The notes below the pieces were generated by a model. It was given only the letters and a program-made list of their open reading frames with translations, ran no database searches and was not told the origin of the DNA. The position numbers were made by a program, and so were the translations under genes. This document shows, piece by piece, positions 20,143-50,510 of a stretch of DNA of 64,000 nucleotides. The stretch is from Candidatus Obscuribacterales bacterium (GTDB lineage: Bacteria > Cyanobacteriota > Vampirovibrionia > Obscuribacterales > Obscuribacteraceae): contig JAIETF010000002.1 of NCBI GenBank assembly GCA_019745415.1, forward strand, positions 26,998-90,997, given 5' to 3'. Each line of letters opens with the position of its first letter. Within the stretch, counting starts at the first letter, position 1.

Positions 20143-20147
20143 GGGTG

Positions 20148-21754: not shown

Positions 21755-21779
21755 GTTTCATTCGGTCCCTCTCCGGTGA

Positions 21780-21817: not shown

Positions 21818-21820
21818 TGC

Positions 21821-21840
21821 TCTATTATGTCGAGTAGTAG
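21821..21840 (+). promoter_or_regulatory. Dyad motif copy 5
   Basis: TCTATTA-TGTCGAG-TAGTAG between terminator and tail gene. Confidence 0.75.
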
Positions 21841-21854
21841 GAAGAGGTCGCGAA

Positions 21855-22499
21855 GTGGACAAGTTGTCAATTATCAATCGAGCTCTCGGCATGATCGGCT
21901 GTCCGCCAATCACTTCGCCCGAAGCGCCAGTAAGCAAAGAGGGCAAGCATCTTGTCGGCATTTTCGACCAGTGCAGAAGGGAGCTGCTCAGGCGATACCC
22001 TTGGAACTTCGCTGAAGTCTGGACCGAGGTCGAGCGGACCACGGCGCCAGCTTTCTATTACACCGATGCGTATTCGCTGCCTCCGCAGTTTCTGCGCTTG
22101 TTGTGGGTGGGCGACTTTGAGAGACCGCTTGTTGATTATCGCTTGCTGCTGCAACCGGAGCCGGATAATCGCAGGGTGATCGCCTGCAATAACTCAAGTG
22201 CGCCTAAGATGAAAATTGGCTATACAGCTGACATAACGCTGTATCCGCTTTGGGACCCGCTCGCAATTAAGTCTTTCGCAATCTGGCTCGCCCTGGACGC
22301 GGCAAAGAATATTACCGGGCAAGATTCGCAGATCTCAAGCCTATTGAAGCTTTTAAGTGAAGAGCTCAAGGACGCCGTTGCAGTGGACGGACAAGAGCAG
22401 GCAATCAGAGAGATGACCTGGAGCAACGTGCAAAATGCAAGAGACCAGGCGCAGTTTGGAGCCGGTTTTGGTTTTGCCGATGTGCGAGGTTTCTACTAA
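21855..22499 (+). CDS. Tail tubular protein A-like (T7 gp11-like) adaptor
   Basis: NRALGMIGCPPI...RRELLRRYPWNFA, typical TTPA N-terminus. Confidence 0.85.
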   Translation: MDKLSIINRALGMIGCPPITSPEAPVSKEGKHLVGIFDQCRRELLRRYPWNFAEVWTEVERTTAPAFYYTDAYSLPPQFLRLLWVGDFERPLVDYRLLLQPEPDNRRVIACNNSSAPKMKIGYTADITLYPLWDPLAIKSFAIWLALDAAKNITGQDSQISSLLKLLSEELKDAVAVDGQEQAIREMTWSNVQNARDQAQFGAGFGFADVRGFY

Positions 22500-25111: not shown

Positions 25112-25554
25112 TGAAGGGACTTGTTACCGTGCCTTTTCGCGAGGCTCACTCTGACCTCTTTGAGCCGCACCCTGACTGGTGCTCAAGCTGGAAGGGCAAT
25201 TTGAATATGCTGGAGATTCTCGGCAAGATGGCTCAAGCTTGCGTGATTCTGCATGACGGGCGGATTCTGTTTATTGGAGCCTATTGCGAGGTTGCCCCTG
25301 GTGTGTGCGAGGTCAGCTTGTTCCCCTCAACCTGGATAGACAAGTATCCGAAAAGCTATGTCAAAGAGGTCAAGTACTGGATTAACAGTCTGAAGGCAAA
25401 ATACAGACGACTGCAATGCTGGGGAGAAGACACAGACAGATCGTATCTGTGGCTGCAAAGGTTAGGCTTTACCTTGGAGGGTAAGCTACGATACTATACC
25501 GTAGAAGGCGATATGCTGATTTGGGGGATGGAAGGCGATGGCAGGAGCGATTAG
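25111..25554 (+). CDS. Internal virion protein A-like / GNAT-like (T7 gp13 position)
   Basis: RSYLWLQRLGFTLEGKLRYYTVEGDMLIWGM, GNAT-like C-terminus. Confidence 0.7.
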   Translation: MKGLVTVPFREAHSDLFEPHPDWCSSWKGNLNMLEILGKMAQACVILHDGRILFIGAYCEVAPGVCEVSLFPSTWIDKYPKSYVKEVKYWINSLKAKYRRLQCWGEDTDRSYLWLQRLGFTLEGKLRYYTVEGDMLIWGMEGDGRSD

Positions 25555-26122
25555 CGGTGGACTAAGCTTAATCGGCGGTATCATGGGCATGGGCAGCCGC
25601 CCAGCAGGTCCAGGAATTGCCCCTCTGATGTACATCATGTCTGGTCGAGAGCAGCAGGCAGCGGCTCAAGCTGAGGCTGCCTCACTTTCAAAGCAATCTT
25701 CAATCGCCTATGAGGAAAGCCTCATGGAGGCTGCGCGAAAAGAGTATCAAGTGAGGCAGTTTCGCGAGCAGCAAGCCTTGAAGTTTGCGAGCTCCGGTAT
25801 CACGCTCCAAGGTTCGCCGCTCGGTGTTCTCGCTGAAACTGAAGCACTTGGAGCGCAAGAAGTCTCTGCAATCAAAAGACGCGGAGAAGCGCTGTCAGGG
25901 CTGTATGAAGCTGAGGGATTGCAGATGCTGCGGCGCGGGAGTGCAGCGGCTTTCTCTGGCTTTGCGCAAGCGATGCAGTCTGAATATGACGCGAAGGTCC
26001 AAGCTTATCAGCACAGCACGCAGAAAGCTCAGACGCTGATGTCTGGAATCGGAGCAGGCGTCCAGGGCTTTGCTTCGCTCTTCAAGTCTAGTGGTAGCAG
26101 CAGCGGATTCTTTCAGCCATAG
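25538..26122 (+). CDS. Internal virion protein B-like (T7 gp14 position)
   Basis: Gly-rich N-terminus, long Ala/Gln helices; synteny. Confidence 0.7.
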   Translation: MAGAISGGLSLIGGIMGMGSRPAGPGIAPLMYIMSGREQQAAAQAEAASLSKQSSIAYEESLMEAARKEYQVRQFREQQALKFASSGITLQGSPLGVLAETEALGAQEVSAIKRRGEALSGLYEAEGLQMLRRGSAAAFSGFAQAMQSEYDAKVQAYQHSTQKAQTLMSGIGAGVQGFASLFKSSGSSSGFFQP

Positions 26123-26131
26123 GAGGCTATC

Positions 26132-28039
26132 ATGCCTGAGCGCTATCAACAAAATCAGCTCGCGTCTTCGCTTGTCGGCACTCCCGGTATTGACACCAGT
26201 GCCGGTGTCGCCGAGGCGCAAATTGCGCAGACCGCAGATGCTGCGAGAACGAAAGAGAATCAGCTGGCTATTGCTCAAATGGCAAACGCTGAACAGTCGT
26301 TCAATCGCGCTGGTGCCTATTTCAATCAGTGGGCTAATCAACGTGCTTACGAGGCGCGGCTCAAGAAGGCGCAAGAAGCTGAGGCGCGGAGACTGCAAGT
26401 GCAGTTCGACCAGCTTGACGAAGACGACTTGATGAACGGCAAAATAACGCAGCTCAAAGAGCAGTTTGCGAACAATCCGCAGGAAGCCTTGAGAGCTTTT
26501 GCGAATGAAGTGCCGCAAATGCGCGAAGAGTTCAAAGCTACTTATGCCTCCGATCCGGTTCGGCTGCGCATGAACCAAGGACCGCAGAGAGCTCGCGAGC
26601 GGGCTGCGTACAATGAGCTGCAAAGCTGGGCACAACAGACAACGAAAGCAAACCTGGAGCAAAGGCTTGCTCTATTTCCGCAGCAAGTGTCTGACAAGAT
26701 CGCCGGCTTGTCTGGTAGCTTTACCGAACAGCTGAAAGGCTTTCAGGGTTTGATGCAGAGTACCAATGCTGTCTATGACACTATGCGCTTGAGCGCCGTT
26801 ACCCAAGCCGATCACGATAAGACTTTCTTGAAACAGCTCGCGCTAAACAACGAAGCTGCGAAACAGTTCGTCGATCACTCGCTGGCGCAAACGCCCGAGG
26901 GAGAAGGCGGCATTAAGTATCTTGAGTCGCTGCAGGATGTTGTCAAGACTGCCAGGCAGAACGGCTTTCGCTTCTCGCCGGAAGACGAGAGCGCGATCAT
27001 GGGCAAAATTCAGACACAGCTGAAAGCTCATGAGCAGGACTTGATTGTCGGCATTCAGGGCGATAATGCGCAGAAAGTCTTGGATGCGAATCGCTTCAAG
27101 TACCAGCTCTTCCAAGCAGCTGACGACCCAGTGTTGATGGCGAATTTAGCAAAGCAAGTCGATGCTCGGATGGCAGAGCTTGACAAACAGATTGCGCTTG
27201 TTTCGCAAGAGCCGGACTCGAAAATCAAGAATGCCAAGCTGACAGGCTTGAAGCAAGAGCAAGCAGCTTACATCACTGAGACTGGACAAGAGCTGAAGCA
27301 GCAGCGTCAGTTCGACCAGCTTCAACGCACGCTAACAAGCTTTGCTCAAGGACAGATTCGGTTTCAGCAAAGCCAGATTTCTTTTCAGCAAGGGCAACAG
27401 AAGTTTGCGCAGTGGCAAGCAGACTTGCTTACAAAAGGGGAAAATCGTGAAGTCACTCGCTTGCATACAGATGCGGTCGACAGCTTTAACAAAGAGTGGG
27501 CAGGCGTCCAGAACAGCTTAAAGGCTGCTTGGTCTCAGCCAGGACTGAAGTCGAAAGAAGCGGTTTCGCAAATCGTTACTGCGACTGTGCCAAAGCTGCA
27601 GAAAGCTTTGTTTGACGGAACGCTCTCCGGTCCTGAATACGGGAAGATGCTGGCTTTTTTAGACGAACAAAATACCAAAGTGCACTCGGCTACTAAGACT
27701 GTGCAACAGCCCTGGTACTTTGGCGGTGGTGAGAAACAAGTGCCGCTCAAGCCTGAAGAAGCAAAGAAAGCCTCCCTCGCAGCCAAGCAGCAGTTTGGTG
27801 ACATTGTTAATCGACAGCAGCAAAATTTCTTGTACATGAACTCTGCAATCAAGCAGCTGGACACTCTCACGACTAGCAAAGGTGAGCGTGCCTTCTTGCA
27901 TCAATTCGTCTCAGCAAATTTGCCGACGATGCTCAACACCAAAAAGTTCCAGGCGAAGTCTCCGCAAGAGCAAGATAGAGATGTTGCGCAGAAAGTTAGA
28001 GAGGCTGTGATTCTTTTTAGACAGGGCAAATTGAAATGA
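26132..28039 (+). CDS. Internal virion/ejection protein (T7 gp15 position)
   Basis: 635-aa helical protein; synteny. Confidence 0.7.
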   Translation: MPERYQQNQLASSLVGTPGIDTSAGVAEAQIAQTADAARTKENQLAIAQMANAEQSFNRAGAYFNQWANQRAYEARLKKAQEAEARRLQVQFDQLDEDDLMNGKITQLKEQFANNPQEALRAFANEVPQMREEFKATYASDPVRLRMNQGPQRARERAAYNELQSWAQQTTKANLEQRLALFPQQVSDKIAGLSGSFTEQLKGFQGLMQSTNAVYDTMRLSAVTQADHDKTFLKQLALNNEAAKQFVDHSLAQTPEGEGGIKYLESLQDVVKTARQNGFRFSPEDESAIMGKIQTQLKAHEQDLIVGIQGDNAQKVLDANRFKYQLFQAADDPVLMANLAKQVDARMAELDKQIALVSQEPDSKIKNAKLTGLKQEQAAYITETGQELKQQRQFDQLQRTLTSFAQGQIRFQQSQISFQQGQQKFAQWQADLLTKGENREVTRLHTDAVDSFNKEWAGVQNSLKAAWSQPGLKSKEAVSQIVTATVPKLQKALFDGTLSGPEYGKMLAFLDEQNTKVHSATKTVQQPWYFGGGEKQVPLKPEEAKKASLAAKQQFGDIVNRQQQNFLYMNSAIKQLDTLTTSKGERAFLHQFVSANLPTMLNTKKFQAKSPQEQDRDVAQKVREAVILFRQGKLK

Positions 28040-37407: not shown

Positions 37408-37754
37408 TTGTCGCAGCTTTGCTGTTGCTTCTGAGCGCTCCGCCGGCACTTGCCCAGGACGACCCTGACGCGCCGCTGAACAATGCTGCGCACCTCACTG
37501 CGCTTGTGCACACGACGAGGGCGCCCAGGTCCTGGAAGAGCTTGAAGATTCTGCCGGGCAAGATTGAGAAGTACTACTACGAGTTTGTCATGCCGGACGG
37601 CACTGTGCGCATTAAAGTGCAGAGCCACCCCCTCACTGCAGAGGGAGTGGCTGACCGCCGACCATTGTCCGAGAGTCACCCGAATGTGCAGGCTACTCTG
37701 ACTGTGCTTCAGACGGGTGCTGCTTGGGGTCCGTCGATTGCTCGTCTGTGGTGA
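37389..37754 (+). CDS. Small exported protein of lysis region
   Basis: MQSKKIIVAALLLLLSAPPALAQ signal peptide. Confidence 0.6.
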   Translation: MQSKKIIVAALLLLLSAPPALAQDDPDAPLNNAAHLTALVHTTRAPRSWKSLKILPGKIEKYYYEFVMPDGTVRIKVQSHPLTAEGVADRRPLSESHPNVQATLTVLQTGAAWGPSIARLW

Positions 37755-38022
37755 AACCGTACTGAAGCCAATCAGAGGCTGACTTGCGGTGTCGTTGAGC
37801 CTGGCGGTCTAAGAAGGCTGCCAGGTCTTCTCTTATCTCATCGTCTGAGATGTTTTCAATACCGCTTAGATACGCACCTGTGTAATCATTATTGCAACTG
37901 ATTTTTATAGAGCCGACATCGCAAGTTAATACTTGCTGCGCTAGCTTCTCAAGCTGTCGAGCTCTCTGGATGTCGTGCGCAGCTTGCTCGATAGCAGTTT
38001 CGTTTTGTATTTTGATAGTCAA
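37693..38022 (-). CDS. Hypothetical phage protein
   Basis: 109-aa ORF, AGGAGG RBS; converges on the lysis region. Confidence 0.6.
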   Translation of the reverse strand: MTIKIQNETAIEQAAHDIQRARQLEKLAQQVLTCDVGSIKISCNNDYTGAYLSGIENISDDEIREDLAAFLDRQAQRHRKSASDWLQYGFTTDEQSTDPKQHPSEAQSE

Positions 38023-38044
38023 TTCTTTGTCCTCCTAGTGATGT

Positions 38045-38251
38045 TTAGTTTGCTGGTTCCGATATTCCGATTAGCTCAGCTTTGTCGTAGTCACGAAACA
38101 CAACTGACTCACCCTTGTTGACTGTCTCTACGCCTCCTAGCTTGAGTTTTGCCGCAATCTCGTTAGAAGCAGGCACTTCTAAATAAACCCAGGTCGGCAC
38201 TCTAAATAGATATCTTTCAACTACGCTAATCACTCTGCTTGTATCGTCCAT
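38045..38251 (-). CDS. Small phage protein
   Basis: 68-aa ORF in - strand cluster. Confidence 0.5.
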   Translation of the reverse strand: MDDTSRVISVVERYLFRVPTWVYLEVPASNEIAAKLKLGGVETVNKGESVVFRDYDKAELIGISEPAN

Positions 38252-38298
38252 TTACTCACCCGTCGTACTTTGTTGTTTAGTTAGTTGCTCTCTAATTG

Positions 38299-38517
38299 TT
38301 AAAGCGCGTTACAGTAGTCGCAATCTTTGTCATCACAAAAAGCAGGACCAGGGCAGCGACTGCGCCCCTGACAGCAATGCTTTTTGCCGGACTGCGGCTC
38401 GTGTAGAGTAACGCCGTATAGTGATTCCTTGGCGACTAGATTCTTGCCACAAGTCGGACATCGTTCAATTGTTTGGTCCCCTACTGCCAAAGCAACCTCC
38501 TTGTAATTCGCTCTCAA
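38299..38517 (-). CDS. Cys-rich small protein
   Basis: CPTCGKNLV...CCQGRSRCPGPAFCDDKDCDYC. Confidence 0.55.
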   Translation of the reverse strand: MRANYKEVALAVGDQTIERCPTCGKNLVAKESLYGVTLHEPQSGKKHCCQGRSRCPGPAFCDDKDCDYCNAL

Positions 38518-38705
38518 TTTTCATTTGGAAAAAGGTCAAACAACTCTTGCTCAAACTTGTATTGCAGCGTCACAAGTTCGTTCTCCGCCTGAATGACAAG
38601 AGACTTTTTAGTCGTGATGTCTATCTGCTTTTCACGTATTTCATCAGCCATTCGAAACAACTTTTTTCTTATATCCGCATTAGATACTTGCTTTTCTTCA
38701 GACAT
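38514..38705 (-). CDS. Small coiled-coil-like protein
   Basis: 63 aa; AACAAGGAG leader. Confidence 0.5.
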   Translation of the reverse strand: MSEEKQVSNADIRKKLFRMADEIREKQIDITTKKSLVIQAENELVTLQYKFEQELFDLFPNEN

Positions 38706-38724
38706 ATTTACTCCTTGTTATTGG

Positions 38725-38937
38725 CTATTTGCGGTCTCGTGGTTTTAGTTCTTTGTCTCTAACAAAAAACTGCGGACGCTGGCGATCCCAGTACGCATCT
38801 ACCGCCTCATATCCAAAAGCTCCAACATCATCTAGCGCTTTGTTGTAAGCCAAGCTCCCGCCCACTGCTTGACCAAGCCAGAACGATGCAGCGAGGAAAA
38901 ATATAACTACAACCGCTGAAGCGAATTCATTTTCCAT
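38725..38937 (-). CDS. Small membrane protein
   Basis: N-terminal TM FASAVVVIFFLAASFWLGQAVGG; AACTAGGAG leader. Confidence 0.5.
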   Translation of the reverse strand: MENEFASAVVVIFFLAASFWLGQAVGGSLAYNKALDDVGAFGYEAVDAYWDRQRPQFFVRDKELKPRDRK

Positions 38938-38963
38938 TGTCTTCTCCTAGTTATTCTTACTTG

Positions 38964-39173
38964 CTATAGATAGCCCTGGTCTTGCCTGTACTTTGCTTTC
39001 GCTTGCCTGATCTGCTCCTTTATCTCTTCCTGCTCTTTCCACCATTTTTCCTTAGCGCCATCTGGGCAAACGTGCGGAAACTCTCCGGCTTGGTCAAATA
39101 GTTTCCATTTGCCCTCTACACACTGCCAATCTAATTCGTCTTCTTGGCAAATAAAACATTTTGCTTTCGGCAT
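38964..39173 (-). CDS. Small CxxC protein
   Basis: CFICQEDELDWQC; TTACAAGGAG leader. Confidence 0.5.
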   Translation of the reverse strand: MPKAKCFICQEDELDWQCVEGKWKLFDQAGEFPHVCPDGAKEKWWKEQEEIKEQIRQAKAKYRQDQGYL

Positions 39174-39190
39174 ATCACTCCTTGTAATTC

Positions 39191-39403
39191 TTACTTTGTT
39201 GCTGTATTTGTTACTGCGTCTATCACGTGGTCGAGCGTGTCAAGCGCTTTATTAAATAGAATCGTGCGAGTTGTTGCTTTTGGGCAAAGTTTTTTCAGCA
39301 TCAAATACGAAGCGAAAACTAATAACTCCACCTCGTTTTTGTTCATCTCACCAGTCATAACCCGCTCCACGTAGTCGTCAAAACTTATCCCTTCTTTCTT
39401 CAA
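39191..39403 (-). CDS. Small phage protein
   Basis: 70 aa; AACTAGGAGG leader. Confidence 0.5.
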   Translation of the reverse strand: MKKEGISFDDYVERVMTGEMNKNEVELLVFASYLMLKKLCPKATTRTILFNKALDTLDHVIDAVTNTATK

Positions 39404-39440
39404 ACCAACCTCCTAGTTATTGCTAATTACTTTGTCTGTA

Positions 39441-40145
39441 TCACTCTTTAATCAGTCGCTTGCGTCGCGCCTTCTCTTCTCGCTGCAACACTGGGTTCCA
39501 TCCCGCTTTCTCATAGTGCTGCCAAGAATAATATGAGCCCTCCCGTTGCCACTTGGGCAAGTAGTCATAATTGACGCTATGCTCTGCTAGGATCTGTTTT
39601 TTACGGTCTTTTGAGGCGTTCTGTAAAGCTTTTGTGGCTGCCGTGGGAGTGTACCCATCTCGCCGCAGCAGCCAGTACGCGTAGGTGTTGAGACAATTCC
39701 TGGTGGCATCTTCCTGGCGCCAAGAAAAATAATCTCTAACGTGGTCATCGGTTGGCAGTTCAGAGATGCGGCAATCGAAAGCAACTATTTGCCCAAAGAA
39801 TCGAGTCAGTGTTGCAGACGCTTCCCCAGCCAATACCGATATCAGCTTGCGCAGTTTCCGGTTAAACGCGGTTTCGTCGGCGGCAAACAAAAGTGATATT
39901 TCATCTGACTGGTGATAGCCTCGCTCGATCGAGAAGCCACACGCAGACATTAGGTACTGCGTTGTTGTTTGCATCCCTAAGTAAAACCCGACATCAAATG
40001 GCTTCTTAAACTGCGAATCTTCGCTTGTGAGTTTGCTAAATCCGCGCCCATCAAGCCGGGCAATCATCCTAAATCCGGGCGGCACACAGCGGTCGCTCGC
40101 TTGCTCGTACACTCTCAGTCTTGCTTCTAAATCGTCAAATCGCAT
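39441..40145 (-). CDS. Thg1-like protein (tRNA 5'-end 3'-5' polymerase family)
   Basis: IARLDGRGFSKLT, GYHQSDEISLLF, DYFSWRQEDATRNCLNTYAYWLL, ILAEHSVNYDYLPKWQREGS align along the Thg1 core; GGGAGGG RBS. Confidence 0.9.
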   Translation of the reverse strand: MRFDDLEARLRVYEQASDRCVPPGFRMIARLDGRGFSKLTSEDSQFKKPFDVGFYLGMQTTTQYLMSACGFSIERGYHQSDEISLLFAADETAFNRKLRKLISVLAGEASATLTRFFGQIVAFDCRISELPTDDHVRDYFSWRQEDATRNCLNTYAYWLLRRDGYTPTAATKALQNASKDRKKQILAEHSVNYDYLPKWQREGSYYSWQHYEKAGWNPVLQREEKARRKRLIKE

Positions 40146-40147
40146 TG

Positions 40148-40318
40148 TCACCCTCCCCATTTCTTCTTGTTTACGACAATGAAGATAATGCTAAAAAGCC
40201 ATATGATGCCCAGCGGGATAAGCTCGATCGCCATCGGGATGAAGCAACACCAAAGCGGGATGCTCAGCAGCTTCAGGCACACTAGAATGAGCAGCACGAT
40301 TGTTAAAACGGTAAGCAT
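40148..40318 (-). CDS. 56-aa two-TM membrane protein preceding Thg1-like gene
   Basis: Translates MLTVLTIVLLILVCLKLLSIPLWCCFIPMAIELIPLGIIWLFSIIFIVVNKKKWGG; AAGGAG RBS; not in ORF track. Confidence 0.6.
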   Translation of the reverse strand: MLTVLTIVLLILVCLKLLSIPLWCCFIPMAIELIPLGIIWLFSIIFIVVNKKKWGG

Positions 40319-40334
40319 TGGTCTCTCCTTCTGG

Positions 40335-40892
40335 TTAGTTATTAGCTAGTTTTTTGAGTGCATTCCCGTGGCGCTCGTTTGTTTTCTCAAGCGCTTCGGC
40401 AAAGCGAAGATCTTCAAACAAGTTATCGGGCACGTCAAAAAAGCCTTGAGCGCCTGTGAAGGGGATCGGCTCAGCCAGAGGCTGAACGTCTTCAAGCATC
40501 CAGCCGAATCGCCCGCGGTCGTAGTTGCCTAGCCAGTACTCCCCGCCTGGTTTGCAGGACGTTATTAGTTTAGTAGTGGACTGGCAGTCTGCTAATCTTG
40601 CCAATGCAACAATTGCTCCGTAAGGCATTGCGAGCATTGCTTCTGTCGCTTTCGCGATGTTGCCTTCTTCGTCGTAGTCAGGCGAGTTCCAAGTTTCTAC
40701 ATCAAGAACTCCCAGCGCTAAGCGGTAATCATCGTCCTCGGCGAGCATCTTAATCTCCTTCAAGACTTTACGCTTTGCTGCGTGAATTGCTATCGGTCCG
40801 CGATAGCCTGTGTACCAGCTCCTTGTCTCAATCTTCTTGGCTCCAGTGGCAATCAGTGTTGCCCACGGTTGCCAGAGTGATATTGCTTTCAA
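40335..40892 (-). CDS. ASCH-domain protein
   Basis: MKAISLWQPWATLIATGAKKIETRSWYTGYRGPIAIHAAK. Confidence 0.88.
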   Translation of the reverse strand: MKAISLWQPWATLIATGAKKIETRSWYTGYRGPIAIHAAKRKVLKEIKMLAEDDDYRLALGVLDVETWNSPDYDEEGNIAKATEAMLAMPYGAIVALARLADCQSTTKLITSCKPGGEYWLGNYDRGRFGWMLEDVQPLAEPIPFTGAQGFFDVPDNLFEDLRFAEALEKTNERHGNALKKLANN

Positions 40893-40907
40893 TGTTTAAT
40901 CCCTCTC

Positions 40908-41402
40908 TTAATTGCGTTGTGCTCTCATATCCGTTATCAGATTCTCTAGGTCTTCTTGGTGTCTCAGGTAGTGCACTTTCAAGTCGCCCGTTCCTCTAGC
41001 CAGGTCCACTCTCAGGAAGCCTTCTGGCAGAAATACGCCCTGTCCACCTGCTAGTATTTTTCGCATCATATCGAGAGTGCCTCTCGACTTGCCATTCCAA
41101 AAAGCAAAGCAAATTCCTCCACCGGCTTCTTTGAACGCTTTGAGCATCTCTGTATTTCGGATAGGTCCAGCAGCATCGCCGTGCTCTGCCCACTTCGCCC
41201 GAAAGACTCTGGGTTTGCTCTTTCTGACTTCTTCCCATGTTCGCGCAGCTTCGCGGTCAACTCCTTTTGCATCACCCACAAAAAGCATTTCAGCAGGGAC
41301 TCTTTTCTCCCCTGGGCGATTTGGCGCAATGAATGCATAAAGAACCGCTTCGACGAGATCTAGGTTTTTATACTCACGGCTTCCTGTCACTAATAAATTC
41401 AA
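40908..41402 (-). CDS. SLOG/DUF2493-like nucleotide-sensing protein
   Basis: LLVTGSREY, FVGDAKGVDREA, DAAGPIRNTEML, KSRGTLDMM. Confidence 0.8.
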   Translation of the reverse strand: MNLLVTGSREYKNLDLVEAVLYAFIAPNRPGEKRVPAEMLFVGDAKGVDREAARTWEEVRKSKPRVFRAKWAEHGDAAGPIRNTEMLKAFKEAGGGICFAFWNGKSRGTLDMMRKILAGGQGVFLPEGFLRVDLARGTGDLKVHYLRHQEDLENLITDMRAQRN

Positions 41403-41459
41403 CTGTCAATCCTCCGGTAGGGGCAGGCGACTTGCACCCGCCCCGTATTTGGTGTCACT

Positions 41460-41726
41460 CTAAGTCGGCTGGTAGGTCGCGAGAAATACTTCGCGCTTCA
41501 TGATGCTGAGCGTTCCTTCGGCGTCCTGGACGATAAAGTCTCCGACGCCGCCGGTCTGAGCTTCTTTGCCTGCGCCCAGTCTGGCGGTGCCTTTCTTCGG
41601 GTCGTAGGCTACGCCGACAACGTGGTCGCTGTTCGGGAGCTCGTCTAGGAAGTCAGACTCGCGAATCTCTTGAGCACGCACAAGCTGCTCTTCGATTGGT
41701 CTTGGAATTGTGATGTACTTTTTCAA
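41460..41726 (-). CDS. Hypothetical phage protein
   Basis: 88-aa ORF, AAGGAG RBS. Confidence 0.6.
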   Translation of the reverse strand: MKKYITIPRPIEEQLVRAQEIRESDFLDELPNSDHVVGVAYDPKKGTARLGAGKEAQTGGVGDFIVQDAEGTLSIMKREVFLATYQPT

Positions 41727-41757
41727 TTGCTTTCTCCTTTAGGCGTTGTGTGAGTGA

Positions 41758-42324
41758 TTAGGCTTTGGGCTTGCGCAGCTTCGCTCTAACGAAGCAGTCT
41801 TTTGCTTCTAGCAGCTTGCGCAGTCCGGCGGTCAGCTCGCTGGAGTCTTCGATCTGCTCAAGCAAAATATCTATCGTTGAGCAAATAGGCTCGACTACTG
41901 CTTGCAGCTCAAGCGGCAAGTGCCCATACTTGAAGTACTCGCAAATGTCTCGCACCGATCCGTGGCGGTTCGCTAGAGCTGTGGGCAGAGCAGGCACGGG
42001 CTCTGGCTTCTCAACGCGCATGGGCTCTGCATCATGCTCTTCCCTGGTCTCGATGTTCACATTCGCAGACGGGTCGAAGCCAAAGCACTTGCGAGTAGCG
42101 CCATAGGACGCTGTCAGGATGGTGATAATTATGCTGCGTTTGCCAAGTTTACTTGGTGTTGACAGCGCAGACAGTTCGACTAACTCTATTTGTTCGCCAA
42201 TTTCGATATGTCCTCGTGATGCGCACGTCACTGGTCGAGCGCTGAACTCATCAATGGACAGTAGTGAGGTTTTGCGATTCCAGATCGCGTCGAAGTCGCT
42301 TCTATTTACAAATATTTGTTTCAT
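41758..42324 (-). CDS. Phage protein with C-terminal helical hairpin (ELTAGLRKLLEAKDCFVRA)
   Basis: C-terminal YFKYGHLPLELQAVVEPICSTIDILLEQIEDSSELTAGLRKLLEAKDCFVRAKL. Confidence 0.65.
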   Translation of the reverse strand: MKQIFVNRSDFDAIWNRKTSLLSIDEFSARPVTCASRGHIEIGEQIELVELSALSTPSKLGKRSIIITILTASYGATRKCFGFDPSANVNIETREEHDAEPMRVEKPEPVPALPTALANRHGSVRDICEYFKYGHLPLELQAVVEPICSTIDILLEQIEDSSELTAGLRKLLEAKDCFVRAKLRKPKA

Positions 42325-42333
42325 GTGTTCCTC

Positions 42334-42630
42334 TCAAGTTGTAATTCCAAGTACTGAAAAAATGTCGTCGTCTTCTTGCGCTGGCTTCTGCAACTCGCTC
42401 CAGCACTCGTCTAAAAGTTCAAATGATTCTTGTGCCCATCTCCGATCTAGTTCGTCTTGTGTGTCAATTGCTTTAGCTCTATCGAGCCAAAAATTTAGAA
42501 CTGCTTCGTTCCCTTGCTCCTTCAGCTTTTGCAGCCGGTCTAAGCAGTATTGTTTTGTCGGGACTTTCTTCGACCTTTTGCCATCAGTCCAGATCGCTTC
42601 ACCACCTACAACTCTCCGAAAAACTGGCAT
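42334..42630 (-). CDS. Hypothetical protein with acidic C-terminus
   Basis: MPVFRRVVGGEAIW...EDDDIFSVLGITT; start overlaps primase stop. Confidence 0.6.
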   Translation of the reverse strand: MPVFRRVVGGEAIWTDGKRSKKVPTKQYCLDRLQKLKEQGNEAVLNFWLDRAKAIDTQDELDRRWAQESFELLDECWSELQKPAQEDDDIFSVLGITT

Positions 42631-44786
42631 TAGCGCACCTCCACGAGAGACCAGAGCACGGGAGCTCGACCGCCGCCGGTGTCGCCCTGGCGCTGTGTGA
42701 TTCGACCGAGAGCTTGCAGCTCTGCAAGTGCAGTTGCAAGCTGACTTGCTTTGCAAGTATTTTTGAATTTACGATTGAGCTCAGTCTGACTTGTCTCCCC
42801 AGCCTGGAGCGCATCTAGCAAGCGCTCGTTAAGCGAGCGAGTAGGCGAGTGCTCAGTCGTTGCAGTGCCGAATATCCAACGAGCAGATGCGAGGCAATAC
42901 TCCCACACGGCATTGGCTGCTTGGAGATGGTGGATCTTGATTGTGTAATCGAGATCGAGGATTGCATATATCAAAGCAAGTCTCCGAATCTGCGCCGGTC
43001 CGCGAGCTGTGATATCTCCGATCAAGCCGCCGACATCCGAGGTGGTGACGCGGTGATAAAGATACCGATAGTACTCAGCTGCTTCGCTGTCGAAGTTGAA
43101 CAAGTGATCGCGCTGCCCGTGACAAATAGCTTTTGCTAGGTCGCTCGCGAGGTGCGGCAAAACGTGCTCGCTTAACCCTTCGGGGAACGCCAATATTTTC
43201 GAGCGGCGTGAGCAAAACCAAAGAAAACGGTTCACAAGCCCATTGCTCAGCTCGACTTTCTCAAGCTGTCTCGACAGCTCATTCTTTGTGATATGTCCGA
43301 GCAGTGCGATATGTCCATCGCTCGCTTGCATGGGATTGGTCTTGGTCATGATGCTCAGCTTGCGACGGTCCCATGCGTCACGAATCACAACTGAGAGCGT
43401 GTTGCCCTGGCGCTGCATCGCTTTGAGCGCTCCTGCAAACTCACTCTCGATCACGAGTAAGCGCTTGTCTGTGACGCCCTCGTCTGCGTCTTCATCCTTC
43501 GTCGCTTTCTTCCCGTCTCTAATCGAAGCTATCAAGCCCTCGCCCGAGCTCAAGCCGTTGCTCACTGTCAGCGGTGGCACTCCGAGCCTCGCTTCAGCGT
43601 CGTCAAAGATTCGCTCGATTGGTCCGAGACTTGTGCCTTTCCTGGCGTTTGCTGACGCTCCGACGACCATGCCGAACACCAGCGGATAGTGGCGGTCGTC
43701 GCCGATCTTCGTCCAAGCGTGACGTCCAAAAGTTGCCCCCGCTCTGACAAGCAAGGTGGCAAGTACAGCCGCCGGATCTGCTTCACTTGATTCGACTGAC
43801 GCTTCGACTATGCGCCCCGCGAGACCATGCAGGGCTGCGGGCTGTAATGTGGGCCACTCACGCACATGAAAATCGTCTGACTCTTCTGCCGGCGGCGCGA
43901 AGTTTTCAAGGGGTGCGTCGAACCGTGCTTTTCTGGGCTCTCGGTAGACCAACCTTTTGCCTGCCAGGTGGAAGATCGTGCCGAGACTTACCGCGCCTCG
44001 CGACGAGCCGCCGCGAAAGCTGCGCCATTTTTTATCGCAGTCACCTGGTCGATACTTCGCCGATCTGCTCGACCAGTCATCCCATGTCGAGAGCGGATAG
44101 CCGCCGGACTTGAGAGCCATGCCGACTTTTATCCAGACGTCATAGTCGTCGCAGTCGATTGCGCGAAGTGCGTCAAGTAAAGCGTCTTCGTCTATCTCGC
44201 GATTGTCTTGCTGCGCAGAAGGCTCAGGCTTCTCGACATAAAATTGCTCATATATCCACTCAAGCGCTTCTTGGCAGTCAGCAAGTGGCACTTGATTGAA
44301 CACGTCACCGGATACGGTGAAATATCTGGGCGAGCGAAAGTCATACAGCTCGATGCCCTGTGTCGAGCCGTCGGCTATTTTCCACTTGCGCTGCCCGGTA
44401 GTGATTGCTCTGCCTTTGCAGAGAATGTGAAAGCCCTCACCGCTGGGTGAGTACTCGATGTACGTGCCCATGAAGTGGCTCAAGATCTCCGCAGCCCACT
44501 CCGCCACTTCGCCGGTAACAACGTCGACGCAGTGGTCCAGGTCAATGCCGACAAGACCGTCTTGCGCCGCGAACACATAGCCAAGCCCCGCCCAGTTGGG
44601 GAGCGCTCTTGATGCTGCCGCGAAGTCTGTCCAGGTCTCAGGTGCGTTAACCCTTGCGAGCTCGCCTGATACTTGTCGTGGTGGCTTAGTCTTTTTGCCG
44701 TCGCGAGTCTCATAGCGCCACATAACCCACTGTGCGCGGCTCTGAAGCTCGACGGGAATATTCTCAAGTTTGGGGGTAGGTGCCAT
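42630..44786 (-). CDS. Prim-pol / PriCT-like / DUF3987 replication protein
   Basis: GIDLDHCVD...YSPSGEGFHI...RYFTVSG; DDYDVWIKVGMALKSGG...W..WS; DUF3987-like core. Confidence 0.8.
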   Translation of the reverse strand: MAPTPKLENIPVELQSRAQWVMWRYETRDGKKTKPPRQVSGELARVNAPETWTDFAAASRALPNWAGLGYVFAAQDGLVGIDLDHCVDVVTGEVAEWAAEILSHFMGTYIEYSPSGEGFHILCKGRAITTGQRKWKIADGSTQGIELYDFRSPRYFTVSGDVFNQVPLADCQEALEWIYEQFYVEKPEPSAQQDNREIDEDALLDALRAIDCDDYDVWIKVGMALKSGGYPLSTWDDWSSRSAKYRPGDCDKKWRSFRGGSSRGAVSLGTIFHLAGKRLVYREPRKARFDAPLENFAPPAEESDDFHVREWPTLQPAALHGLAGRIVEASVESSEADPAAVLATLLVRAGATFGRHAWTKIGDDRHYPLVFGMVVGASANARKGTSLGPIERIFDDAEARLGVPPLTVSNGLSSGEGLIASIRDGKKATKDEDADEGVTDKRLLVIESEFAGALKAMQRQGNTLSVVIRDAWDRRKLSIMTKTNPMQASDGHIALLGHITKNELSRQLEKVELSNGLVNRFLWFCSRRSKILAFPEGLSEHVLPHLASDLAKAICHGQRDHLFNFDSEAAEYYRYLYHRVTTSDVGGLIGDITARGPAQIRRLALIYAILDLDYTIKIHHLQAANAVWEYCLASARWIFGTATTEHSPTRSLNERLLDALQAGETSQTELNRKFKNTCKASQLATALAELQALGRITQRQGDTGGGRAPVLWSLVEVR

Positions 44787-45198
44787 TATTGTCGATTTCT
44801 GTGAGATAGATTGTGACGCCGGGCTCTTCGCCGGGATTGCAATAACGCTTTGACTCAGTCCTGGTGCACACTTGAGAGTCGTCTTTGTAGACAATGCCTG
44901 TCAGTGAGTCTTCAGTCGAGCGAATAATTTTTGTAAGGTCTGGCGTAGTGATGTGCCAGTGCGGCTGATATCGCTTTGTATGCGACTTCGGACGCGCAAA
45001 CCGAAAGTCTAAGAACATCAACACTGGACCGGTCAGCAGCTCTCCGGTGTACTGCGCTTTTGCTGCTTTCGCAACCTGGTCTCTCCAGATTGCAGTCAGG
45101 GGGCTCGCATCGCGGACGAACATCTTGCCGGATTTCGACATGCCGGGCGTTTTGCTTCCCTGCGGACGCGGCACCCCACTGACTTCAATCTTGATCAT
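44764..45198 (-). CDS. RusA-like Holliday junction resolvase
   Basis: VSGVPRPQGSKTPGMS, RPKSHTKRYQPHWHITTPDLTKIIRSTEDSLTGIVYKDDSQV. Confidence 0.88.
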   Translation of the reverse strand: MIKIEVSGVPRPQGSKTPGMSKSGKMFVRDASPLTAIWRDQVAKAAKAQYTGELLTGPVLMFLDFRFARPKSHTKRYQPHWHITTPDLTKIIRSTEDSLTGIVYKDDSQVCTRTESKRYCNPGEEPGVTIYLTEIDNNGTYPQT

Positions 45199-45566
45199 TA
45201 GGCAAATGGATCGTAGTCGTCGGACGAATCAGCGCCCTGGTCGCCCTGGTCTTTTTTGCCATTTGGCATAAGCTCCACGCGCTGGCAGTTGACGAGAGTG
45301 CGCGAGCGCTTCTCGCCTGACTGGGACTCCCACTTATCTACCTCTAAACGACCGATGATGCCTACCATGTCACCTTTCCGCACGTACTGATTGACAGTAT
45401 CGACCTGGTCTCCCCAGGCTCGCACGTCGATAAAATCAACCTGCTTCTCTTTCGTCGGACGCTGAAGCGCGATACTGAAATCGACTTTCTTCTTGCCTGA
45501 CTCGAAATACCTAGCTTCAGGCTCTCTGCTGACTCTTCCGACTAACACCACATTATTCACGCTCAC
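45198..45566 (-). CDS. ssb: Single-stranded DNA-binding protein
   Basis: NNVVLVGRVSREPEARYFESGKKKVDFSIAL...; acidic tail DSSDDYDPFA. Confidence 0.92.
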   Translation of the reverse strand: MSVNNVVLVGRVSREPEARYFESGKKKVDFSIALQRPTKEKQVDFIDVRAWGDQVDTVNQYVRKGDMVGIIGRLEVDKWESQSGEKRSRTLVNCQRVELMPNGKKDQGDQGADSSDDYDPFA

Positions 45567-45590
45567 GACTAATCTCCTTATTTTTTTTGT

Positions 45591-45974
45591 CTACACTTTG
45601 CGCGGGTCAGTCTCTACCCAGGGGAGAGACTGAGGGCTGGTTGGCTCTGGTCTCGGAGACACCACCGGCGGTATCGTCTTGACCGAACCGATTGGCACTC
45701 TTGGCAGCGCTTCTGCAGCCTGAGCGAAAAACACCAAGAGCAGGGCGAGCGGGAGCGTGCCAGGCCACTTCTCTAGCTCAGCTGTCGCCTGGTCAACGAG
45801 CTTGTCCCAGATTCGCTTTTCGCGCTCGCTGGCTTTCGGACCGAACGGAAATGCGCGGCGCATCTCCGGTCGAATAGCGCGAGCTGCTTGACCCTTGCGA
45901 GCTTTAATGACCTCATTGATTGCAAGCTTCGCTTCCATTTCGATCTGCTTGTCTGTGCGCTTGTCGTTACTCAT
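45591..45974 (-). CDS. Hypothetical phage protein
   Basis: 127-aa ORF in replication operon. Confidence 0.5.
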   Translation of the reverse strand: MSNDKRTDKQIEMEAKLAINEVIKARKGQAARAIRPEMRRAFPFGPKASEREKRIWDKLVDQATAELEKWPGTLPLALLLVFFAQAAEALPRVPIGSVKTIPPVVSPRPEPTSPQSLPWVETDPRKV

Positions 45975-48216
45975 CGTCTCCCCCTTCGTCGTCGGCTTGC
46001 GCTCCGCCTAGCTTCGCAAGCGAGCACTTGCCGAGCGGGTCTTTAGGCACAACCTTGGTGCCTGGTATGTCCGTTAGTGCGCCTTTGTTTATCAGGCTCA
46101 ACAGAGTGCGGCTGTTGAAGTCTACGGACGGACGAGCATTGATATTTTTGAAAGCCTCAAAGCCTTTTGCTTTGATATGCTCGACAATTTTTTCTCTGTC
46201 GAATATCTGAGCGCCGCCGGTCTGGCTGAACTTCACGGGACCGGAAGGCAAGGTCATCGTCTTGCCGACAAACTCACCTTTCTTGTTTGTCTTGAGCCTG
46301 TACTTTGCGAGCATTCGCGCCATAGGCTGAATGAACTGCTCAAAATAGAACTGCGCTGCGCCGTCGTATGGCTTGCATCGAGCTTCGCAGGCTGCGCGAT
46401 ATCTTGCAGCTTTCTCCAAGTGTCCATACGCCCGGTCAACAACCTGGTCAAGCTTCTGCTCGAAAGCATCGACTTGCTCTTTGGTCGCGCCGTCGCGCAA
46501 GACGGGCAACTCAGTCCAGCCAAATTTTTGCAAGATAAAACTTGGCTCGATGACCTCGCCGGTCTCAGGATCGACAAGCCCTGCCTCGGTGCGCTCCTGC
46601 GCTTGCTTCTGCTCGACAGGCTCTTGCTGTTGAGCTTGCTGCTGTTCGACGGGCGGAGCGTCTTGTCCGACTTCAACGCCCTCGCGTGTGACCTCGACAG
46701 TAGTGGCAATATCGTTGACGATTGCCCAGGACACATTGTCACCGACAGAGCGGACCGCATGATACAAGGCGCGAGTGCAGGGCACGATGACAATTTTTGA
46801 AACGTCAGCGACTTGGCTCAGTTGAGTGAGAATAGCGTCTAGACCTTCGCGGGTCTTGTCGACGCCCCAAATGCGATCTCCCTCGAAAGCCATGAAGTAG
46901 GTTGTCGGAGGTTGCGCTGGCTGTTCAGCCGGTGCAAGCTTAAGATCAAATCCAAGCTGAAAGCCAAGCTCCTTTTTTACCTGCTCCAGAGTTGGTTTGC
47001 ACTTATTCCAGACAAGACTAGCAAAGGTTAGCTCGTGTGCAACTTGCCCATCTTTCTCGGGTTTGCAATAGTTTCTTATCTCACCCCAAAGCCAGGCGAG
47101 AGCCAATCGTCTGGCTGCTTTCGCTAGGTCAAGCTGCTTCGCTTTGTCGGCGGGTTGAGGTATCTTCTCAAAGCGTCCTGCTACTCTCAAATAATCGACC
47201 GCCTCGTCAAGCACTGGGGTCCAGGGCTTCCCTAGCAGGCTAGCCGTTGCATCAAGCAAGACGCCGATATCCATGTCACTTGCCGTATCAGAGAGCAAAG
47301 CAAAAAGATTATCTTCCTGAAGAATCACTTCAAGCGGTGCGCGATTACTAGGTGCAGGTTCAGGCAAGAAGTTCTCGACTCGTTCTTCACCTGGTTTCTC
47401 GGCTGTCACTGTGCCGGTGAGCTGGCACTTTTTGCAGATGCGACGACCATCGTCGAGTGTTGGGCTGTTTTTGTTGGTCTTGACGTTGTTGCAGATCGCG
47501 CACATGCTTGCAGTGCTGCCTGCTGTTGATTCGACCTGCTTTGGCTCAGCTCTATTTTCTGCGCAGACCTCTATCCAATCTGGCACCGCTTCCTTTGCTT
47601 CCTGCTCAGTGCCAAAGAAATGCTCAAGCGCGTTAAACTTGCCGTTCTCGACAATGCCGACATCAAAAGTGCCTTCGTGATCTTCACTCGGCTGGACAAC
47701 GACATTGCCTTCCTCTGGATGGGCAACTGTTACGCCGAGCGCAGCAAAGATGTCATCGTCTGCTGCTGTCGCTTCAGGCGCGGGTGTGTTCCAGATGTGA
47801 GCAAACGCATCCTGCTTCTGCTCAGCAAGCTTTATTAGCTCAGCTTCCAACGAATAAAGCGGGCAGCCCTTGAGGTTATGCAGTGGCTGGGTAAGAGCTT
47901 GCACGCTTATCGCTGCCTCAAGCTTTTGAATCTCTTCCTCGGTCAAGCAAGCCTCGGCGATACCGTACTGGTACAGGGCTTCTCTGTACTCGTTGACAGT
48001 GGTCACGCGGAGGTCTTTCTCAGGCTCGACCGATATCTCGCCGTTAGACCATGCAACAGTAATTCCTAGCTCGCCAACGGCTTCGACCATGCCAAAGGCA
48101 AAACCGTCGACATCTTTGACGAGGTCGCCCACTTGAGGCACCGCTCTCAGTGCCGATTGTTGCACCGGCTTCACTCCACCTGGCGGCGGGTACTTTCCAA
48201 AATCTATTGCTGACAT
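45967..48216 (-). CDS. Large multidomain phage protein with zinc ribbon
   Basis: CAICNNVKTNKN...CKKC; internal DDDIFAALGVT; C-terminal segment faintly Gam/Gp157-like. Confidence 0.65.
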   Translation of the reverse strand: MSAIDFGKYPPPGGVKPVQQSALRAVPQVGDLVKDVDGFAFGMVEAVGELGITVAWSNGEISVEPEKDLRVTTVNEYREALYQYGIAEACLTEEEIQKLEAAISVQALTQPLHNLKGCPLYSLEAELIKLAEQKQDAFAHIWNTPAPEATAADDDIFAALGVTVAHPEEGNVVVQPSEDHEGTFDVGIVENGKFNALEHFFGTEQEAKEAVPDWIEVCAENRAEPKQVESTAGSTASMCAICNNVKTNKNSPTLDDGRRICKKCQLTGTVTAEKPGEERVENFLPEPAPSNRAPLEVILQEDNLFALLSDTASDMDIGVLLDATASLLGKPWTPVLDEAVDYLRVAGRFEKIPQPADKAKQLDLAKAARRLALAWLWGEIRNYCKPEKDGQVAHELTFASLVWNKCKPTLEQVKKELGFQLGFDLKLAPAEQPAQPPTTYFMAFEGDRIWGVDKTREGLDAILTQLSQVADVSKIVIVPCTRALYHAVRSVGDNVSWAIVNDIATTVEVTREGVEVGQDAPPVEQQQAQQQEPVEQKQAQERTEAGLVDPETGEVIEPSFILQKFGWTELPVLRDGATKEQVDAFEQKLDQVVDRAYGHLEKAARYRAACEARCKPYDGAAQFYFEQFIQPMARMLAKYRLKTNKKGEFVGKTMTLPSGPVKFSQTGGAQIFDREKIVEHIKAKGFEAFKNINARPSVDFNSRTLLSLINKGALTDIPGTKVVPKDPLGKCSLAKLGGAQADDEGGDDE

Positions 48217-48243
48217 TTTGTCTCTCTCTAAAGTGTGTGTGAA

Positions 48244-49485
48244 TTACGCTTTGGGCCAGTGATGGCTCTCGGGCAGTGGCTGACCGCGGTGGTCGACCAG
48301 GACGCGCCCGCCTTTATTGCCCGGATGGCTCAGTATCTTGACCGCAGCTTCCCACTGCTTGACAGTGAAGGCAGTCTCTATCTGGCGAATGTCGAGCTTG
48401 AACTGATGACACAACCAACCTGTTACGGTCTGTCCTGTCCATCCGTTAGCCGTTGCTGCTTGCAGAAGCTGCTGCAATTGCACCTTGGATACAATCTCTA
48501 CACCGGCAGGCGTCGTGGTGTCTGATCCAGCGCCCGAGCTTTTCCCAGTAGTGGACTTTGGGTCAGGCTGGCTCGCAGAGGCAGAGCTTGCACCGGCATT
48601 GCTTGCCGTGCTCGACCCAGAGTTTGCGCTTTTCGTCGTAGTGCTCTGTTGGGTGTTCGCCTTCCCACTGCCCGCAGGGGCAGGGGTCGAGCTCGCAGGT
48701 GCAGTCTGCGATTGTTCTTGTTGCGCCGCAACCCTCGCATCGTCCGCATTGCTGCTGCTCTGACCAGACGACTCTGCCTGGGACTTTGGGACCGCTGCAA
48801 CACCATTGTCGAGCCAAGCTTTTAGAGTTTCTGCGAACTCCTTGCCTGGATTGCGAGTGACGACGCCATCTACGAGGTGACATCTAGTCTTGCTCACAAC
48901 CATGTCATGTTCAAGATTGAGGTCGCAAATTACGTCAAATTCATACTCGACACCCTCTCTCTGAACCGGCGCCATGCCGACTTTCTTCGGCACTTTCCTG
49001 CCTCGCTCGTTCTCTTCAAGCACGTACTCTTGCTTGGTGCGCATAGTCGCGATGACGTGACACTTACTCTGCAACATTGCGTCGACCAGTGCGTTATGCT
49101 GCGGCGTGACTTCTCTCCAAGCTGCAAAACTGTTGCCGCTCTGCGATTTCTTCGCAGCCTTGTCGACCTGCTCAAGAGCGCCGTCCTTGCCGGACCAAGC
49201 GTGAGACAGTGAGTCGATTATCACAACTTCATAGCCGGCTTTCTCGGCTTCTTTCAACATGGTAACGTAGTGCTGGGGCGAGTGTGTCTCCAGGTCAACC
49301 GTGTCGAAGTTAAACAGGTCGGCATACTTGCTCGCACTACCACGCTCGCTGTCTATTACTGCGATCTTGGCACTGAGCGCGGTGGCAAAAGTCAAAGCGG
49401 TGAAGGTCTTGCCCGAGCCGCTAGGACCCATCAAAGCAAGCCGGAGCTTTGACTTTTCTTTAGTAGCTTTCTTGAATAATGACAT
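48244..49485 (-). CDS. Sak4-like / AAA_24 recombination ATPase with long disordered linker and C-terminal helical domain
   Basis: LALMGPSGSGKTFTALTFATAL (Walker A), YEVVIIDSLSHAWSG (Walker B). Confidence 0.85.
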   Translation of the reverse strand: MSLFKKATKEKSKLRLALMGPSGSGKTFTALTFATALSAKIAVIDSERGSASKYADLFNFDTVDLETHSPQHYVTMLKEAEKAGYEVVIIDSLSHAWSGKDGALEQVDKAAKKSQSGNSFAAWREVTPQHNALVDAMLQSKCHVIATMRTKQEYVLEENERGRKVPKKVGMAPVQREGVEYEFDVICDLNLEHDMVVSKTRCHLVDGVVTRNPGKEFAETLKAWLDNGVAAVPKSQAESSGQSSSNADDARVAAQQEQSQTAPASSTPAPAGSGKANTQQSTTTKSANSGSSTASNAGASSASASQPDPKSTTGKSSGAGSDTTTPAGVEIVSKVQLQQLLQAATANGWTGQTVTGWLCHQFKLDIRQIETAFTVKQWEAAVKILSHPGNKGGRVLVDHRGQPLPESHHWPKA

Positions 49486-49835
49486 TTACGTTCCTCTCTC
49501 CTAATTACTGCTCTCTTCTCAATCTCTGCGAGCACCGCATATAGTGCTAAAAAACAGAGACAAAACACGTCGAAATGGCTCATGCCTACTCCTTTACACG
49601 CGAAAGAAGAGCAGCCGCCGCGATGGCAGAGCGCGTACCCCCACACTCCTGCGAAGGCGGAGACTGCTCTTGTTTTGCGTATATATCAGCTATATCGCTT
49701 AGTATTTGAAAAGACAAAGAAAGCGCCATTATCTAGCCCGCATGAAAGCGGGATAACAAGCCAATAACAAGAGGTGTTACACCCCTGGTTGTTGCTATTC
49801 AGTTGTTTCAAAAGTCCCGGCTAACCGGTCACGTG

Positions 49836-49862
49836 AAAATGTTACCGCGCCGGAAACATTTT
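49836..49862. repeat. Inverted repeat in replication-operon upstream region
   Basis: AAAATGTT-11 nt-AACATTTT. Confidence 0.7.
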
Positions 49863-49892
49863 TGAACACGCGAAAACTTAAAATTTCAAAAT

Positions 49893-50111
49893 TTAATCTT
49901 TACTTGAGTATGCGGCTAGTTTCTTTCGCAGGCTGCAAATCTCGATAGACTGGTCTAGTAGGGCGTTATCGAGGTTTTGCGCCCGAATCTCTAGGCTGCG
50001 CACTTTTTCCTCAAGAGCTGCCAACCTGGCTTCTGACAACCTGTTGCCGATGGGGGAGCACAGGGCAGGCAGGCAGGAGACAGTAAAAACTAGGCAGATT
50101 AAACGCTTCAC
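49893..50111 (-). CDS. Small exported coiled-coil protein
   Basis: MKRLICLVFTVSCLPALCSP signal; LAALEEKVRSLEIRAQNLDNALLDQS. Confidence 0.55.
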   Translation of the reverse strand: MKRLICLVFTVSCLPALCSPIGNRLSEARLAALEEKVRSLEIRAQNLDNALLDQSIEICSLRKKLAAYSSKD

Positions 50112-50371
50112 TCTTCGACAATAAGGTCCTGGTCGGCGAGGTCGTCCAATGAGACCTGGAGCGCTTTGCTCAGCCTCTTCGCAGTCTCCAGGTGCATGGG
50201 TCGCTCGCCCCGGAAGTTGCGGAAGAGAGTGATCGCGGTCACGTCGCTCATTTTTGCGAGTGTGCGTAGTGTGGGCTTTACGTCGAGCGCCTCCATCCGC
50301 AGCTTTACATAAGGAGGAAGACCATCGCCCCAGCCGCTGGCTTTTCTCGCGCTGTCCATAAGATATAACAT
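50108..50371 (-). CDS. XRE-family HTH regulator (candidate prophage repressor)
   Basis: LRTLAKMSDVTAITLFRNFRGERPMHLETAKRLSKALQVSLDDL; start uncertain (50386/50371/50359). Confidence 0.75.
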   Translation of the reverse strand: MLYLMDSARKASGWGDGLPPYVKLRMEALDVKPTLRTLAKMSDVTAITLFRNFRGERPMHLETAKRLSKALQVSLDDLADQDLIVEE

Positions 50372-50437
50372 CCCCCGATTATACATATGTACTAGACTGC
50401 GAACATTAAAGGACGGATAATCCTTGTATATAGATTG

Positions 50438-50510
50438 TGGAGCGTAAGGGAGTCGAACCCTTGACCTCTTCAATGCCATTGAAGCGCGCTACCAACTGCG
50501 CTAACGCCCC
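50438..50510 (-). tRNA. tRNA-Ala(GGC), reconstituted at attR
   Basis: Full cloverleaf GGGGCGT TA GCGC AGTTGGTA GCGC G CTTCA ATGGCAT TGAAG AGGTC AAGGG TTCGACT CCCTT ACGCTCC A; G3:U70 identity pair. Confidence 0.97.

What the first reader, a model, noticed from the sequence alone, without database searches (positions are those of the whole stretch)
39441..40145. Prophage-encoded Thg1-like 3'-5' nucleotide polymerase lacking the HINNLYN motif
The protein aligns by eye along the whole Thg1 catalytic core: RLDGRGFSKLT (metal Asp), YHQSDEISLLF (second Asp/Glu), DYFSWRQEDA, SVNYDYLPKWQREGS. Canonical tRNA-His guanylyltransferases carry HINNLYNT; here the position reads TRNCLNTY. That loss is characteristic of Thg1-like proteins (TLPs) that repair 5'-truncated tRNAs. 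A phage copy could restore tRNAs damaged by host RNA-targeting defences, in the way T4 Pnkp/Rnl1 counters anticodon nucleases. The anti-defence role is inference.
Basis: partly seen in the sequence, partly recalled or inferred. Interest (0 to 1): 0.78.

Follow-up and report, generated by a model that had tools for sequence, protein, structure and literature searches.

The report
Prophage reverse-direction RNA repair polymerase
A 42.5-kb prophage carries an intact gene for an enzyme that rebuilds RNA 5' ends "backwards"; its nearest relatives sit in bacterial RNA-repair operons, so it probably mends damaged tRNAs during infection, a role already proposed for other phages but never tested.

Summary
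All ten checked BtTLP catalytic residues are kept. The missing HINNLYN is real but uninformative, because no prokaryotic TLP examined has it. The gene sits inside a roughly 20-gene minus-strand replication operon of a complete-looking 42.5-kb temperate prophage integrated in tRNA-Ala(GGC).

It does not group with the annotated (mostly jumbo) phage TLPs (33% identity or less). It groups, at 39-52%, with bacterial TLPs, 23 of 24 of which directly follow an AAA_33 polynucleotide-kinase-like gene. Three lie in Hen1-kinase-TLP-Pnkp operons. The prophage has no such kinase. Its host carries Pnkp-Hen1, RlaP and RtcB but no other TLP, and its tRNA-His gene already encodes G-1.

Best explanation: a TLP that restores 5' nucleotides on damaged tRNA, using existing 5' phosphates or ones made by a host kinase. 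Anti-defence use is plausible but untested, and was proposed for phage Thg1 in 2010 and 2021. New member of a known kind.

The parts
39441..40145 (-). TLP gene (Thg1-like protein), 234 aa
   Evidence: Pfam PF04446 + PF14413, phrog_4717, PDB Thg1/TLP matches, AlphaFold + Foldseek
40148..40318 (-). 56-aa hydrophobic (putative membrane) ORF ending 2 nt before the TLP start, so probably translationally coupled
   Evidence: sequence read directly; no Pfam match; spacing
40335..40892 (-). ASCH-domain protein (phrog_3193), upstream neighbour in the same operon
40908..41402 (-). YAcAr-type SLOG protein, upstream neighbour in the same operon
   Evidence: (PF10686)
37693..49485 (-). minus-strand gene run holding the TLP: Sak4-like annealing protein, SSB, RusA, primase, YAcAr, ASCH, TLP, small ORFs; gaps of at most 57 nt
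7945..50479 (.). prophage between att repeats (50 bp, 88% identical); the att copy at 50430-50479 overlaps tRNA-Ala(GGC) at 50437-50510
   Evidence: (D5)
8025..8957 (+). prophage integrase next to the left att site
   Evidence: phrog_1, E 5.8e-58
14579..16234 (+). terminase large subunit (phage hallmark)
   Evidence: phrog_2

Best explanation
The gene encodes a TLP, a template-dependent 3'-5' RNA polymerase. It activates a 5'-monophosphate RNA end with ATP or GTP and adds nucleotides to the 5' end, restoring 5'-damaged tRNA (or a similar structured RNA). Placed in the replication-gene operon, it is probably made early in the lytic cycle, so the phage keeps usable tRNA when tRNAs are damaged, for instance by host RNases. 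The prophage lacks the polynucleotide-kinase-like partner that bacterial relatives carry, so it would use ends that are already 5'-phosphorylated, or ends phosphorylated by the host's Pnkp. Shown: family, predicted fold, retained catalytic residues, prophage and operon setting, clade, host repair genes. Inferred: activity, substrate, timing, use of a host kinase, benefit against defence.
For: Family and fold. Catalytic residues defined in BtTLP (PMC3701042) E12, R28, D30, K43, S74, D75, E76, K99, R131, R147 all have identical counterparts (E19, R35, D37, K53, S85, D86, E87, K105, R131, R148 in 239-aa numbering). Clade of bacterial RNA-repair TLPs: 23 of 24 cellular members have an AAA_33 kinase gene directly upstream, mostly overlapping, with Hen1 and/or Pnkp or RlaP nearby in several. 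Across 386 genomes of the phylum this TLP co-occurs with Hen1 in 9 genomes against 0.6 expected. Host has Pnkp-Hen1, RlaP and RtcB. G-1 addition would be redundant: host tRNA-His encodes G-1 opposite C73. Early-operon placement. TLPs prefer 5'-truncated tRNA repair in vitro (PMC6471195).
Against: No activity was measured. The window protein lies on a long branch (1.32 changes per site) and deviates at positions nearly invariant in its clade (K188 for N, Q189 for E, E207 for R, Y210 for G) and lacks the C-terminal ELPMKDEY-type tail, so substrate handling may have changed or weakened. The usual kinase partner is absent from the window. No known defence system or tRNase is linked to it, and PADLOC finds nothing among the ten window proteins scanned.
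Confidence: 0.6

Rival explanations
1. It works as a specific counter-defence: during infection it repairs tRNAs cut by a host abortive-infection RNase, as T4 Pnkp/Rnl1 does for PrrC damage. (A narrower form of the best explanation; the two overlap.)
For: Relatives lie with Pnkp/Hen1, a known ribotoxin-damage repair system (PMC4411300, abstract; operons); phage XacN1 carries Thg1 together with Pnkp and Hen1 (PMC5852040); early-operon position; proposed for phage Thg1 in PMC2904730 and PMC7824862.
Against: No phage kinase was found with it and no RNA ligase was recognised among the prophage genes scanned; a TLP alone cannot reseal an anticodon-loop cut. No target nuclease identified.
Confidence: 0.3
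2. It serves the lysogen: the host has Pnkp-Hen1 without a TLP, and the prophage supplies the missing 3'-5' polymerase for host RNA repair.
For: Cyanobacteria-like relatives have kinase and TLP between Hen1 and Pnkp; the host operon has only Hen1-Pnkp; no other TLP in the host genome.
Against: One genome only; half of the Hen1-bearing genomes in the sample lack a TLP anyway; the TLP lies among replication genes, expected to be silent in a lysogen.
Confidence: 0.12
3. It is a tRNA-His guanylyltransferase that adds G-1, as the PHROG label says.
For: Family annotation.
Against: Host tRNA-His already encodes G-1 opposite C73; no tRNA-His in the prophage; HINNLYN anticodon-reading motif absent.
Confidence: 0.04
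4. It is a decaying passenger gene with no present function.
For: Long branch and loss of several clade-conserved residues and of the C-terminal tail; lost partner.
Against: Intact ORF with a ribosome-binding site inside a tight operon; every checked metal- and triphosphate-binding residue retained; other phage TLPs vary at the same C-terminal positions, e.g. E in L111, N or Y in L087, L091, L095, L100, L101.
Confidence: 0.12

Closest known systems
Bacterial PNK-linked Thg1 operons (Anantharaman, Iyer & Aravind 2010, PMC2904730)
   Same: Same kind of gene neighbourhood in the relatives; same clade by tree and 39-52% identity to those relatives; same catalytic residues.
   Different: Bacterial members directly follow an AAA_33 kinase gene (23 of 24); the prophage copy has none and lacks their C-terminal tail.
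Annotated phage TLPs (XacN1, CBB, GAP32, phage G, BcepSauron and others; PHROG 4717)
   Same: Phage-borne Thg1-like protein without HINNLYN.
   Different: 33% identity or less among the listed hits; the seven phage records sampled fall in a separate, strongly supported clade with BtTLP (100/99); mostly large phages, whereas this is a 42.5-kb temperate prophage.
Bacillus thuringiensis TLP (PDB 4kgk/4kgm)
   Same: Fold and all ten checked active-site residues.
   Different: Other clade; the window protein keeps a helical segment after the HINNLYN position that is shorter in BtTLP-type proteins.
Pnkp/Hen1 RNA repair system (PMC4411300)
   Same: The TLP clade occurs inside Hen1-kinase-TLP-Pnkp operons and co-occurs genome-wide with Hen1.
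   Different: No Pnkp, Hen1 or RlaP in the window; the host has Pnkp-Hen1 elsewhere in its genome.

Membership tests
Thg1/TLP superfamily | Thg1 catalytic palm domain and Thg1C domain | tested here: met
   PF04446 90.2 bits (cut-off 29.2), PF14413 55 bits (cut-off 26.3); fold
Thg1/TLP superfamily | three carboxylates and NTP-binding basic residues | tested here: met
   D37, D86, E87, R35, K53, K105, R131, R148 retained
Thg1/TLP superfamily | 3'-5' nucleotide addition | not testable with these tools
   needs biochemistry
Eukaryotic-type Thg1 (tRNA-His guanylyltransferase) | HINNLYN motif | tested here: not met
   reads TRNCLNT
Eukaryotic-type Thg1 (tRNA-His guanylyltransferase) | host tRNA-His lacking encoded G-1 | tested here: not met
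   G-1:C73 encoded
PNK-linked bacterial TLP clade | phylogenetic placement | tested here: met
   inside the 43-row clade, support 95/79 (just under the SH-aLRT threshold of 80); exact position within it unresolved
PNK-linked bacterial TLP clade | adjacent AAA_33 kinase gene | tested here: not met
   none in the window; 15 of 19 viral clade members also lack it
Phage anti-defence (tRNA repair) protein | restores phage growth against a tRNA-damaging defence | not testable with these tools
   needs plaque assays

The most novel reading that the evidence does not exclude
Phages of this clade have repeatedly taken the 3'-5' polymerase out of the bacterial kinase-TLP repair module and use it without its kinase, relying on the host's Pnkp-Hen1 or on natural 5'-phosphate ends, so that a single small phage gene redirects a host RNA-repair pathway against tRNA-damaging defences.
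Probability: 0.2. Interest if true: 0.6.

Novelty: new member of a known kind. Interest (0 to 1): 0.38.

Why it matters
The biological substrate of bacterial and phage TLPs is an open question (PMC6471195). A small temperate phage with a stand-alone TLP from the RNA-repair clade, in a host that has Pnkp-Hen1 but no other TLP, separates polymerase from kinase and ligase. That makes the phage-repair hypothesis testable one gene at a time.

Tried and rejected
G-1 addition to tRNA-His: rejected as redundant. A missed kinase in the prophage: none by tblastn or HMM. A frameshifted C-terminal tail: not encoded in any frame after the stop. Defence-system membership: no PADLOC match among ten window proteins. 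A cyclic-nucleotide synthase reading (mCpol/GGDEF relatives): Foldseek puts Thg1/TLP far ahead (E<=5.4e-12) of cyclases and GGDEF proteins (E about 1e-2). Conserved ASCH/YAcAr-TLP linkage: other TLP loci do not share the pair; the only matches are distant YAcAr relatives in L005 and L006, about 1-5 kb from the TLP. Comparison with a sister prophage failed: the only TerL relative in the host family (G023, 67% identity) is on a 3.7-kb contig, and IMG/VR holds no close TerL relative. The viral-versus-cellular difference in kinase linkage is strong when uncorrected (p 3.5e-7) but rests on only 5 supported independent pairs (not significant). Most relatives were fetched by patterns from this protein or its clade alignment, so the sample is biased to its kin. 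Burroughs & Aravind 2016, a main review of RNA-repair systems, was not held.

Full report
Observation. The first ATG is at 40160, but the ATG at 40145 is the better start: it has GGAGGG 6 nt upstream, follows a 56-aa hydrophobic ORF by 2 nt, and matches the start of homologues. The protein matches Thg1 (PF04446, E 1.4e-25) and Thg1C (PF14413, E 1.1e-14), PHROG 4717, and solved TLP and Thg1 proteins. AlphaFold gives mean pLDDT 93 and pTM 0.85; all 32 PDB chains matched at E<=0.001 are Thg1/TLP.

Active site. Residues that bind metal and nucleotide in BtTLP (PMC3701042) are conserved at all ten positions checked. At the HINNLYN position the protein reads TRNCLNT. No prokaryotic TLP compared has HINNLYN; the first His is kept in most of the closest bacterial relatives but replaced in 18 of 19 viral clade members. 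The motif loss therefore says 'not a eukaryotic Thg1' and nothing more. The C-terminal third is less conserved: K188, Q189, E207 and Y210 replace residues nearly invariant in the clade, and a C-terminal tail present in all 22 relatives of alignment A1 is missing, without a frameshifted remnant.

Setting. Att repeats at 7945-7994 and 50430-50479, the second overlapping tRNA-Ala(GGC), with an integrase beside the left one and terminase, head-tail adaptor, major head and tail genes between, define a 42.5-kb prophage. The TLP lies in a run of about 20 minus-strand genes with gaps of at most 57 nt that includes a Sak4-like annealing protein and primase, SSB and RusA. That is an early/replication unit, not an isolated lysogenic-conversion gene. 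Expression timing is inferred.

Relatives. Annotated phage TLPs (111 records) are at most about 33% identical among the listed hits. Bacterial and plasmid TLPs of the nearest clade reach 39-52%, and some IMG/VR contigs reach 51%. A maximum-likelihood tree separates a BtTLP/jumbo-phage clade (100/99) from a second clade holding the window protein (95/79); its exact place inside that clade is unresolved. In the second clade 23 of 24 intact cellular members have an AAA_33 P-loop kinase gene directly upstream, most overlapping the TLP start. The exception, a Thiodictyon plasmid, has RlaP downstream. Three phylum members have Hen1-kinase-TLP-Pnkp operons, with Pnkp confirmed by kinase, phosphatase and ligase domains. 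Only 4 of 19 viral members have the kinase adjacent; this contrast is strong uncorrected but not significant in 5 independent pairs.

Host. The host genome has no other Thg1 but has Pnkp and Hen1 in tandem, RlaP and RtcB. Over 386 genomes of the phylum, this TLP and Hen1 coincide in 9 genomes against 0.6 expected (one of the nine has only a Hen1 fragment, and genomes are related, so the p value is not a formal test). Host tRNA-His encodes G-1 opposite C73.

Mechanism and literature. TLPs activate a 5'-monophosphate and extend it against the 3' acceptor strand, and prefer 5'-truncated tRNAs in vitro (PMC6471195, PMC3701042). Anantharaman et al. 2010 (PMC2904730) already reported the bacterial Thg1-polynucleotide kinase neighbourhood, suggested that the kinase supplies the 5' phosphate, and raised RNA repair against host defences for phage 201phi2-1. 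Iyer et al. 2021 (PMC7824862) listed Thg1 among jumbo-phage RNA-repair genes, and XacN1 carries Thg1 with Pnkp and Hen1 (PMC5852040). What is added here is a member of the kinase-linked clade in a small temperate prophage, without its kinase, in a host with Pnkp-Hen1 but no other TLP. Repair of 5'-damaged tRNA is the best reading; use against a specific defence remains unproven.

Verdict. Real, correctly identified and sensibly interpreted, but a new member of a known kind with a previously published hypothesis. Interest 0.38.

Noticed in passing
window 9878-9942 (-): Type II hammerhead ribozyme (RF02276, 43.9 bits, above gathering score) inside the left part of the prophage.
   Followed up: no
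window 45967-48216 (-): 749-aa protein in the replication operon with no Pfam, PHROG or PADLOC match.
   Followed up: no
window 11175-11801 (-): Serine resolvase-family protein in addition to the integrase at 8025-8957.
   Followed up: no
window 40908-41402 (-): YAcAr SLOG-family protein, a family predicted to act on NAD-derived molecules (PMC7824862), a few genes upstream of the TLP in the same operon.
   Followed up: partly
window 32453-34650: Four copies of a 79-nt repeat in two adjacent genes of the tail region.
   Followed up: no
window 2402-2527: Three head-to-tail 42-nt copies, each with an inverted repeat resembling a terminator hairpin.
   Followed up: no
L049 6831-7616 (-): A TLP relative in a Hen1-bearing genome of the phylum (G223) with the first catalytic Asp and several other active-site residues replaced and no kinase neighbour: probably inactive.
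   Followed up: partly
L121 4546-8647 (-): Host Hen1-Pnkp tandem without the kinase-TLP pair found between these genes in relatives.
   Followed up: yes
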